A DNA stretch of 48,686 bases from an uncultured Bacilli bacterium (lineage in GTDB: Bacteria > Bacillota_I > Bacilli_A > RF39 > UBA660). The notes beneath the pieces are model-generated. The model was given only the letters and a program-made list of their open reading frames with translations. It made no database searches and had not been told where the DNA came from. This document shows, piece after piece, positions 9,079-12,490 of the stretch; the stretch's first letter is position 1, and each line of letters starts with the position of its first letter. Position numbers and translations under genes: made by a program. The stretch is from positions 1-48,686 of the forward strand of contig CANROW010000011.1 in assembly GCA_947632345.1 (NCBI GenBank), in the 5' to 3' direction.

Positions 9079-9279
9079 ATGATTAGAACACCTGTAAAAG
9101 ATAATAATATTGATGCAGCTTTAAAGAGATTTAAACAAAAAGTTGCGCGTGATGGTGTCCCTTCTGAATGTCGTAAAAGAGAATGTTATGACAAACCAGG
9201 AATTAGAAGAAGAGAAGCTAAGAAGGCTGGTATAAAAAACACCCAAAAGAGAAATAGAGCAAATAATCGAGGAATGTAA
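9079..9279 (+). CDS. rpsU: 30S ribosomal protein S21
   Basis: Small-subunit protein near the mRNA exit site, needed for efficient initiation. The 66-aa sequence has the family opening VKDNNIDAALKRFKQK, the Gly-Val-Pro turn and the RKRECYDKPGIRRR stretch, then a basic tail somewhat longer than the usual 57-58 aa. ATG 9079 follows GGAGGGGAG; the longer in-frame reading from 9058 is discarded. A terminator overlaps the stop codon, so S21 is made from its own short mRNA rather than with yqeY. Confidence 0.95.
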   Translation: MIRTPVKDNNIDAALKRFKQKVARDGVPSECRKRECYDKPGIRRREAKKAGIKNTQKRNRANNRGM

Positions 9280-9302
9280 GAAGTGGTTAACACTTCTTTT
9301 TT
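9279..9302 (+). terminator. rpsU terminator
   Basis: AGAAGTG (9279-9285) pairs with CACTTCT (9291-9297) over the loop GTTAA, followed by a run of T to 9302. The stem starts on the last base of the rpsU stop codon. Confidence 0.88.
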
Positions 9303-9313
9303 GGTAAACTTTA

Positions 9314-9322
9314 TGCTAGAAT
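9314..9322 (+). promoter_or_regulatory. Extended -10 promoter for the structured leader RNA upstream of yqeY
   Basis: TGC followed by TAGAAT (9317-9322) forms an extended -10 with no good -35. The predicted start, near 9329-9330, is the first base of the 5' arm of the pseudoknot described next, which supports both calls. Confidence 0.55.
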
Positions 9323-9328
9323 ATTGCT

Positions 9329-9420
9329 AGGAGATGACCAATAAAAATAAAAGCCTGTGGTAGTTGTCATCTCCAACCGGTCAAAGCCGTAAAAATATAG
9401 GAACAAATCCACAGTGCTTA
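9329..9420 (+). ncRNA. Predicted H-type pseudoknot RNA (candidate aptamer domain of a yqeY leader)
   Basis: No reading frame occupies this stretch, but it is strongly structured. P1 pairs GGAGATGAC (9330-9338) with GTCATCTCC (9366-9374), nine perfect pairs. Inside the P1 loop, AAGCCTGTGG (9351-9360) pairs with CCACAG-U-GCUU (9409-9419): ten pairs with one bulged U, closing a classical pseudoknot. A small hairpin CGG/CCG (9378-9380 with 9387-9389) lies in the third connector, and the first connector is A-rich, as in minor-groove triplex pseudoknots. I could not match it to a riboswitch class that I know. It sits between the rpsU terminator and yqeY and continues into the possible ribosome-site switch at 9423-9510. 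Confidence 0.55.
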
Positions 9421-9422
9421 AA

Positions 9423-9510
9423 TATTATATCTCATTTCAGATGTAATAAAAAAATATTATAGAAAGGAGCATCTAATATAGTGATTAATAAAAAAATCAC
9501 ATAATTAGAT
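9423..9510 (+). promoter_or_regulatory. Mutually exclusive helices around the yqeY Shine-Dalgarno (possible expression platform)
   Basis: Three helices compete. (i) TATTATATCT (9423-9432) pairs with AGATGTAATA (9439-9448), ten pairs. (ii) The same strand extended, 9423-9438, pairs with 9462-9478, masking GAAAGGAG: 14 of 16 positions pair, with two mismatches and bulged C9470. (iii) ATCTAAT...GTGATT (9471-9486) pairs with AATCAC...ATTAGAT (9495-9510) around an 8-base loop. Helices i and iii free the ribosome site, and iii also shortens the path from AAAGGAG (9463-9469) to the yqeY ATG at 9524 to about 14 bases. No other ribosome site is near that ATG. This is the layout of a translational switch; the ligand or trigger is unknown. 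Confidence 0.5.
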
Positions 9511-9523
9511 TATACGTGAAATT

Positions 9524-9967
9524 ATGGATTTATTCGAAAAGTTTAATAAAGATATGGTTACAGCCATGAAAGAACAAGATAAAGAACGCTTGACGGTTCT
9601 AAGAATGGTTAAAGGGGCTATGCAACTTGAACATATCAATGCTAAAAAAGAGATGAATGAAGAATTATTGATCGATTGTGTCGGAAAACAAATCAAAATG
9701 CGTAACGATTCCATTGCTGAATTTGAAAAAGGAAATCGTACGGATCTAATTGAACAGACCAAAAAAGAAATTGTCATATTGAATGACTATTTACCTGAAC
9801 AGTTATCTCAGGATGAGGTTGCAGTTATCATCGATGAAGCTTTCGCTAAAATCAAACCAAGTTCTGCCAAAGAAATGGGACTCATTATGAAAGAAGTAAC
9901 TCCTAAGTTAAAGGGTAAAACAGATATGAAACAAGTCAGTGATATGATTAAAAATAGATTAGCATAA
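9524..9967 (+). CDS. yqeY: GatB/YqeY domain protein
   Basis: A 147-aa helical protein with the whole YqeY family pattern: VTAMKEQDKERLTVLRMVKG near the start, a central EFEKGNRTDLIEQ segment and the C-terminal KGKTDMKQVSDMIKNRL. The domain resembles the tRNA-binding tail of the GatB amidotransferase subunit, and a role in tRNA-linked metabolism is usually assumed. The rpsU-yqeY order is conserved in Bacilli. The start at 9524 is forced by an upstream in-frame stop (9506) and lacks a nearby ribosome site, which makes the leader structure at 9423-9510 relevant to its translation. Confidence 0.92.
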   Translation: MDLFEKFNKDMVTAMKEQDKERLTVLRMVKGAMQLEHINAKKEMNEELLIDCVGKQIKMRNDSIAEFEKGNRTDLIEQTKKEIVILNDYLPEQLSQDEVAVIIDEAFAKIKPSSAKEMGLIMKEVTPKLKGKTDMKQVSDMIKNRLA

Positions 9968-12043: not shown

Positions 12044-12490
12044 ATGGAGATAGAAGTTTTTAATGAAACGGATGAAAAATTAGAAAAAGAATTGCAAGAT
12101 TTAAAAGAACTTTTGATAAATGTTGCCCACGATGAAGACCTTGATAATATTTTATTTAATGTTATAATAGTAGATAATGATAAGATAAAAGAACTCAATC
12201 GTGATTATCGGGGCATTGATCGTGAGACTGATGTCATATCTTTTGCCTTAGAGGATGATAAGACTTTTAATCTATCAGATATCAGGGTACTTGGCGATAT
12301 CTATATATCAATTGATAAAGCTCGATCCCAAGCTGAAGAGTATGGACACTCATTTAAGAGGGAATTATCCTTTTTAGCAATTCATGGGTTCTTGCATTTA
12401 CTTGGGTATGATCATATGCGTGAAGAAGATGAAAAAGTTATGTTTGCTAAACAAGAGGAGGTCTTAGCTCGTTATGATATTAGTCGGTAG
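12044..12490 (+). CDS. ybeY: Endoribonuclease YbeY (rRNA maturation factor)
   Basis: A metallo-endoribonuclease acting in 16S rRNA 3'-end maturation and ribosome quality control. The zinc motif HGFLHLLGYDH (HxxxHxxxxxH) is complete and is followed by the acidic helix expected in the family. The central RGIDRETDVISFAL matches the conserved TDVLSFP-like strand. The length, 148 aa, is normal. It sits in its conserved place upstream of dgkA and overlaps that gene by 17 bases. Confidence 0.95.
   Translation: MEIEVFNETDEKLEKELQDLKELLINVAHDEDLDNILFNVIIVDNDKIKELNRDYRGIDRETDVISFALEDDKTFNLSDIRVLGDIYISIDKARSQAEEYGHSFKRELSFLAIHGFLHLLGYDHMREEDEKVMFAKQEEVLARYDISR

What the first reader, a model, noticed from the sequence alone, without database searches (positions are those of the whole stretch)
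9329..9420. Unrecognised H-type pseudoknot RNA between rpsU and yqeY
Nine perfect pairs (9330-9338 with 9366-9374) and ten pairs (9351-9360 with 9409-9419, one bulge) interlock as a pseudoknot in a non-coding leader. The likely transcription start lies exactly at its 5' arm. Long, GC-richer pairing inside such an AT-rich gap is unlikely by chance. An A-rich first connector and a hairpin in the third resemble small-ligand riboswitch pseudoknots, but it fits no class that I know.
Basis: partly seen in the sequence, partly recalled or inferred. Interest (0 to 1): 0.78.

Follow-up and report, generated by a model that had tools for sequence, protein, structure and literature searches.

The report
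IS110 bridge-RNA remnant at ribosome-binding site
The 'pseudoknot' is the leftover end of an RNA-guided jumping gene (IS110 family) that inserted between the ribosome-binding site and the start codon of yqeY, and its two 'stems' are the guide RNA's own stem plus the match between the guide and the site it targeted; related elements in many gut bacteria carry guides aimed at ribosome-binding sites.

Summary
The pairings exist as described, but they are not a riboswitch-like leader. The seven congeneric genomes with a readable rpsU-yqeY gap have only TAGGAGATGA(R)..ATG there; the window has a 182-nt insert (9337-9518) between Shine-Dalgarno (SD) and ATG. The insert is a repeat family. Most complete copies carry an IS110 recombinase gene (PF01548/PF02371) on the opposite strand. 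[quoted passage not shown] In 16 copies the guide matches its own left flank (0/20,000 permutations reach the observed total). The second guide matches the right flank (3/20,000), a donor guide matches the element's end (12/14), and the circle junction forms TTGACW-N17-TATAAT in 14/14 full copies. The window copy has lost the recombinase and donor loop, so the target SD and its guide lie in one transcript and look like a pseudoknot. 41/43 copies sit 2-8 nt before a start codon; 60/62 recombinase relatives have SD-like guides. The mechanism is known (IS110 bridge/seek RNA); a clade programmed against SDs appears undescribed in the papers searched. Transcription and mobility are inferred.

The parts
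9278..9298 (+). rpsU intrinsic terminator (upstream context)
   Evidence: terminator scan; same layout in congeners
9314..9322 (+). extended -10 (TGcTAGAAT) of the native yqeY promoter, left of the insertion
   Evidence: by eye; similar TATGTTAAAAT at the same place in congeners; not called by the consensus scan
   Evidence: congeners read TAGGAGATGAGATTATG here; guide match test
9337..9518 (-). the insertion: 182 nt including one core copy; IS110-type left end with bridge-RNA 5' part, recombinase gene and donor loop deleted
   Evidence: full homologues L033, L092 etc.; core assignment
9337..9338 (-). last two bases (AC on +) of the IS right end left after the internal deletion, followed directly by CAATAAAAATAAAAG of the left end
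   Evidence: L092 reads GGAGATGAC|TAACTATAA...CTAACTAATTAC|CAATAAAAATAAAAG
   Evidence: near-invariant in 28 copies; motif in 15/395 class genomes, 0 controls
   Evidence: matches own flank in 16 copies, 0/20000 permutations
9378..9389 (-). apical hairpin of the target-binding loop
   Evidence: G-U/C-G exchanges on the minus strand in 28 copies
9389..9400 (-). left target guide (sense-identical to the right flank GTGAAATTATGG)
   Evidence: identity to own right flank across 28 copies, 3/20000 permutations
9460..9469 (+). TAGAAAGGAG, SD-like on the yqeY strand; GAAAGG present in 28 of 28 copies
   Evidence: function as replacement SD is inference
9471..9510 (.). terminal hairpin ATCTAAT..ATTAGAT (5' stem-loop of the bridge RNA on minus)
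   Evidence: compensatory changes at 4 pairs
9509..9514 (-). -10 box TATAAT of the bridge-RNA promoter, complete only in the circle junction
   Evidence: TTGACW-N17-TATAAT in 14 of 14 full copies
9517..9518 (.). right core dinucleotide (TG on +, CA on minus)
9524..9967 (+). yqeY (147 aa), start codon 5 nt after the core

Best explanation
9337-9518 is a decayed IS110-family insertion sequence inserted antisense between the SD and ATG of yqeY. [quoted passage not shown] The right target guide (9366-9374) is complementary to the SD it was targeted to and the left guide (9389-9400) resembles the start-codon side. An internal deletion removed the right end, recombinase gene and donor-binding loop, placing target and guide 27 nt apart; read on the + strand they look like an H-type pseudoknot (P1 = target x guide, P2 = target-loop base stem). 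The intact relatives work as known IS110 elements: excision as a circle rebuilds a promoter at the junction, the bridge RNA is made, and its two loops pair target (SD) and donor (IS ends) at a CT/CA core. Shown: insertion, family, guide-target and guide-donor matches, junction promoter sequence, target position. Inferred: transcription, recombination activity, loss of mobility of this copy.
For: The seven congeneric genomes with a readable gap lack the insert. Repeat family in 38/385 family genomes, reversed-pattern control found in 1. IS110 recombinase adjacent (PF01548 1.6e-35, PF02371 1.7e-18). Guide vs own left flank 0/20000 permutations, 11 distinct guides also 0/20000; guide 2 vs right flank 3/20000. 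Junction promoter 14/14. Donor guide 12/14, 0/5000 permutations. 41/43 copies 2-8 nt before an ORF start. Guide orientation on the recombinase strand matches the LTG/RTG rules in PMC11208160. A second tnp-less copy, L109, at an SD in the same arrangement. Compensatory changes in the 5' hairpin.
Against: No RNA-seq or recombination assay. The base stem is too conserved to test by covariation. G-U evidence for the minus strand is modest and one near-invariant position (C-A on minus, U-G on plus) points the other way. No recombinase copy was found in the window's own 78%-complete genome. Guide 2 matching is weaker than guide 1. The permutation tests do not correct for relatedness beyond collapsing identical guides.
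Confidence: 0.95

Rival explanations
1. A cis-acting + strand leader RNA (riboswitch or ribosomal-protein-type regulator) of yqeY that folds as the pseudoknot.
For: The pairings exist; a promoter-like site lies just upstream; the + strand transcript through the remnant could physically form P1 and P2.
Against: Absent from yqeY leaders of relatives; the same element stands before ddl, gap, a Nudix gene, a tmcAL-like gene and many others; in full copies the P1 arms are 1.4 kb apart; the minus strand carries the junction promoter.
Confidence: 0.02
2. A self-splicing intron or ribozyme whose internal guide pairs with the 5' exon (the SD), so that splicing restores SD-ATG spacing.
For: Insert sits between SD and ATG and carries a 9-nt match to the 5' flank; removal would restore the ancestral leader.
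Against: No group I/II family match; an IS110 recombinase, CT/CA core, donor guide and junction promoter explain all features; guide 2 matches the right flank in sense, as in a bridge RNA.
Confidence: 0.01
3. The 182-nt unit is an independent miniature element (MITE) of this IS, mobilised in trans, rather than a copy that decayed in place.
For: L109 is a second short recombinase-less copy at an SD; short copies keep the left end and target loop.
Against: L109 and the window have different deletion endpoints (TAACTA repeat versus AC); the window keeps only two bases of the right end, so donor recognition should fail; the nearest full-length match (97%, L033) belongs to a full element.
Confidence: 0.08

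Closest known systems
IS110-family insertion sequences with bridge RNA (IS621; Durrant et al. 2024, PMC11208160)
   Same: DEDD/Transposase_20 recombinase; RNA in the left end upstream of the gene and on its strand; target loop then donor loop; left guide identical to left target and right guide complementary to right target; core CT; promoter rebuilt at the circle junction
   Different: Target is the SD instead of REP elements; some copies use core CA; the window copy lacks recombinase, donor loop and right end
IS1111/IS110 seekRNA elements (ISEc11, ISEc21; Siddiquee et al. 2024, PMC11187229)
   Same: RNA-directed, element-specific target choice; circle-junction promoter; non-coding region upstream of tnp as in the IS110 type (ISEc21)
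   Different: IS1111-type subterminal inverted repeats were not examined; SD targets are not mentioned in the passages read
preQ1-II-like or other H-type riboswitch pseudoknots
   Same: Superficial layout: two interlocked helices with a hairpin in the third connector (recalled, not tested by alignment)
   Different: No Rfam hit; not conserved at yqeY; P1 is guide against DNA target

Membership tests
IS110-family element (as a decayed member) | DEDD_Tnp_IS110 + Transposase_20 recombinase | tested here: met
   Met in full homologues (L033); absent in the window copy itself and not found elsewhere in its genome
IS110-family element (as a decayed member) | Non-coding RNA region with target guides matching both flanks, opposite strands | tested here: met
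   (guide 1: 0/20000; guide 2: 3/20000)
IS110-family element (as a decayed member) | Donor-binding loop guides matching the element ends | tested here: met
   12/14 full copies; deleted in the window copy
IS110-family element (as a decayed member) | Shared core dinucleotide at both junctions, no longer duplication | tested here: met
   CT or CA core explains the junctions inspected and the empty sites
IS110-family element (as a decayed member) | Promoter rebuilt at the circle junction | tested here: met
   TTGACW-N17-TATAAT in 14/14; activity not testable here
IS110-family element (as a decayed member) | Bridge RNA bound by recombinase, RNA-guided recombination | not testable with these tools
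   needs RNA-seq and recombination assay
Riboswitch / cis-regulatory leader of yqeY | Conserved structured leader upstream of orthologous genes | tested here: not met
   absent in the congeners' yqeY leaders; no Rfam match
IS1111 subgroup | Non-coding RNA region downstream of tnp | tested here: not met
   RNA lies upstream of tnp in every full copy
IS1111 subgroup | Subterminal inverted repeats | not tested
   not examined

The most novel reading that the evidence does not exclude
A widespread clade of IS110 elements has its bridge RNA programmed to the Shine-Dalgarno sequence, giving it a target in front of very many genes, and its left end carries on the opposite strand a replacement SD (GAAAGG, 28/28 copies) that a hairpin loops towards the start codon, so that the invaded gene stays translated.
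Probability: 0.35. Interest if true: 0.75.

Novelty: new variant of a known kind. Interest (0 to 1): 0.52.

Why it matters
It removes a false riboswitch candidate and replaces it with a natural case of RNA-guided transposition aimed at a universal functional motif, the ribosome-binding site. The clade (Bacilli and Clostridia, including isolates) offers many natural guide-target pairs for testing bridge-RNA rules, and raises a testable question: how a gene stays translated after its SD has been moved away by an insertion. It also warns that target x guide complementarity in decayed IS110 copies can mimic a pseudoknot.

Tried and rejected
Rfam at gathering and at relaxed threshold: nothing meaningful. 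HDV-like, group I and group II ribozyme readings were considered from the layout and dropped once the recombinase and guides were seen. An IS200/605-type miniature element with ATGA/GTGA targets was considered and rejected: the core is explained by CT/CA and the recombinase is IS110. A target-site duplication of 3-4 nt was considered; it is explained by the core plus the IS end base. A 7-aa leader peptide (GTG at 9482) was rejected: not conserved in divergent copies (L051). The first ddl search had wrong coordinates, repeated; ddl empty sites were read in only two congeners. In one search many of the listed relatives (28 of 79) lack the TATAAT-type left end I searched for, and their boundaries were not worked out.

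Full report
Observation. Interlocking helices of this size occur in about 1% of dinucleotide shuffles, so the sign was worth following. Rfam has no match.

What it is. The yqeY leader of seven congeneric genomes (L003-L009) is short: rpsU terminator, promoter, TAGGAGATGA(R)..ATG. The window has 182 extra nt after TAGGAGATG. The ancestral leader here is inferred as TAGGAGA-TG-AAATTATGG. A 97% identical copy of the insert stands before ddl in another congener (G008), with further contig-end pieces before other genes. A conserved 18-mer from it occurs in 38 of 385 genomes of the family; the reversed control occurs in one. In most copies with enough contig a divergent, opposite-strand ORF precedes it; the one tested is an IS110 recombinase (PF01548, PF02371).

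Why it is a bridge-RNA region. On the recombinase strand the stem CUGUGG/CCACAG encloses a 5' guide, an apical hairpin and a 3' guide, the layout of an IS110 target-binding loop (PMC11208160). The 3' guide is complementary to the element's own right target, which is the host SD read from the other strand. Written on the + strand, guide/flank: GTCATCTCC/GGAGATGAC (window, L033, L092), GTCACCAATA/TATTGGTGAC (L101), GTCTCCTTTAA/TTAAAGGAGAC (L110), GCCTCCAA/TTGGAGGC (L098). Over 16 copies the summed contiguous match is 134 nt; permuted pairings average 52.6 and never exceed 100 in 20,000 trials; with 11 distinct guides the result is the same. The other guide is sense-identical to the start-codon flank more than expected (174 against 153.1, 3/20,000). 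Between this loop and the recombinase gene lies a second region holding a copy of the right-end sequence TAGTTAG and a 6-mer complementary to core plus left end; the latter fits its own element in 12 of 14 copies (permutation mean 5.4, maximum 11). Joining right end, core and left end gives TTGACW-N17-TATAAT in 14 of 14 full copies. Across 28 copies the terminal hairpin shows compensatory changes and the base stem is nearly invariant. G-U exchanges in the apical hairpin favour the minus strand at two positions; one near-invariant position would pair only on the plus strand, so this strand test is weak by itself.

The window copy. Full copies read GGAGATGAC|TAACTATAA...recombinase...CTAACTAATTAC|CAATAAAAATAAAAG; the window reads GGAGATGAC|CAATAAAAATAAAAG. 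Everything between two AC dinucleotides is gone, including the donor loop and all but two bases of the right end. L109 is another short copy, with a deletion between two TAACTA repeats. These repeats are the right end and the donor guide that matches it, so guide-end identity gives a direct repeat through which the gene can be lost (inference). The deletion brings target and guide close together on the yqeY transcript; hence the 'pseudoknot'.

Target choice. 41 of 43 copies lie 2-8 nt before the start codon of an ORF of at least 50 aa. Recombinase relatives in Bacilli and Clostridia, including Lacrimispora xylanisolvens, show the same: 60 of 62 readable right target guides are SD-like (31% expected for their composition, using a permissive SD pattern), and 36 of 51 with a recognisable left end have a host ORF of 40 aa or more starting 1-11 nt away. 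These counts include near-identical relatives. The loop motif GCACTGTGGATTTGT is found in other families of the class, with seven copies in G541, all with the same guide; by eye each lies next to a start codon. I found no description of SD-targeting IS110 elements in the papers searched; preprints, subscription papers and supplementary target logos were not searched, so absence there is weak evidence.

Possible effect on the invaded gene. The insertion moves the SD away. The element's end and core leave a partial SD (GTGA, GAGA or GAGG) next to the start, and on the host strand GAAAGG occurs in 28 of 28 copies directly before a hairpin that ends about 12 nt from the ATG. A replacement SD looped towards the start codon is possible; equally CCUUUC may serve the bridge RNA. 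Untested.

Classification. Member of the IS110 family by every feature testable in full copies; the window copy is a remnant. The mechanism is known; the SD-programmed guide is the variant.

Noticed in passing
L211-L217 (G541, seven loci): Seven copies with the same guide (TTGGAGGAGAC) and identical left-end sequence next to start codons of seven different genes in one contig of 2.16 Mb: a recent multi-copy expansion on SD sites.
   Followed up: partly
L117 / L050 (G008:C26, near 12228-12298): A 5'-truncated piece of the left end directly downstream of what looks like a tmRNA 3' end (TCTCTCTGTCTCCGCCA), before a copZ-like gene.
   Followed up: no
L108 and L051: Decayed copies in which an SD is followed directly by the apical hairpin or guide; the P2 5' arm is lost, so no pseudoknot could form.
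   Followed up: partly
L103 (G389:C45): Full copy with about 100 nt of extra sequence, including inverted repeats, inserted inside the bridge-RNA 5' region.
   Followed up: no
L184, L185, L190 (CP076021.1, Mycoplasmatota strain zrk7) and other Acholeplasma-like relatives: Related recombinases without the TATAAT-type left end recognised here; their boundaries and targets were not worked out, though L190, L192, L195 and L198 have SD-like guides.
   Followed up: no
L095 (G249:C3): Full copy whose right flank has no start codon near the core (GTGAATTTAGATAA), possibly a decayed host gene.
   Followed up: no
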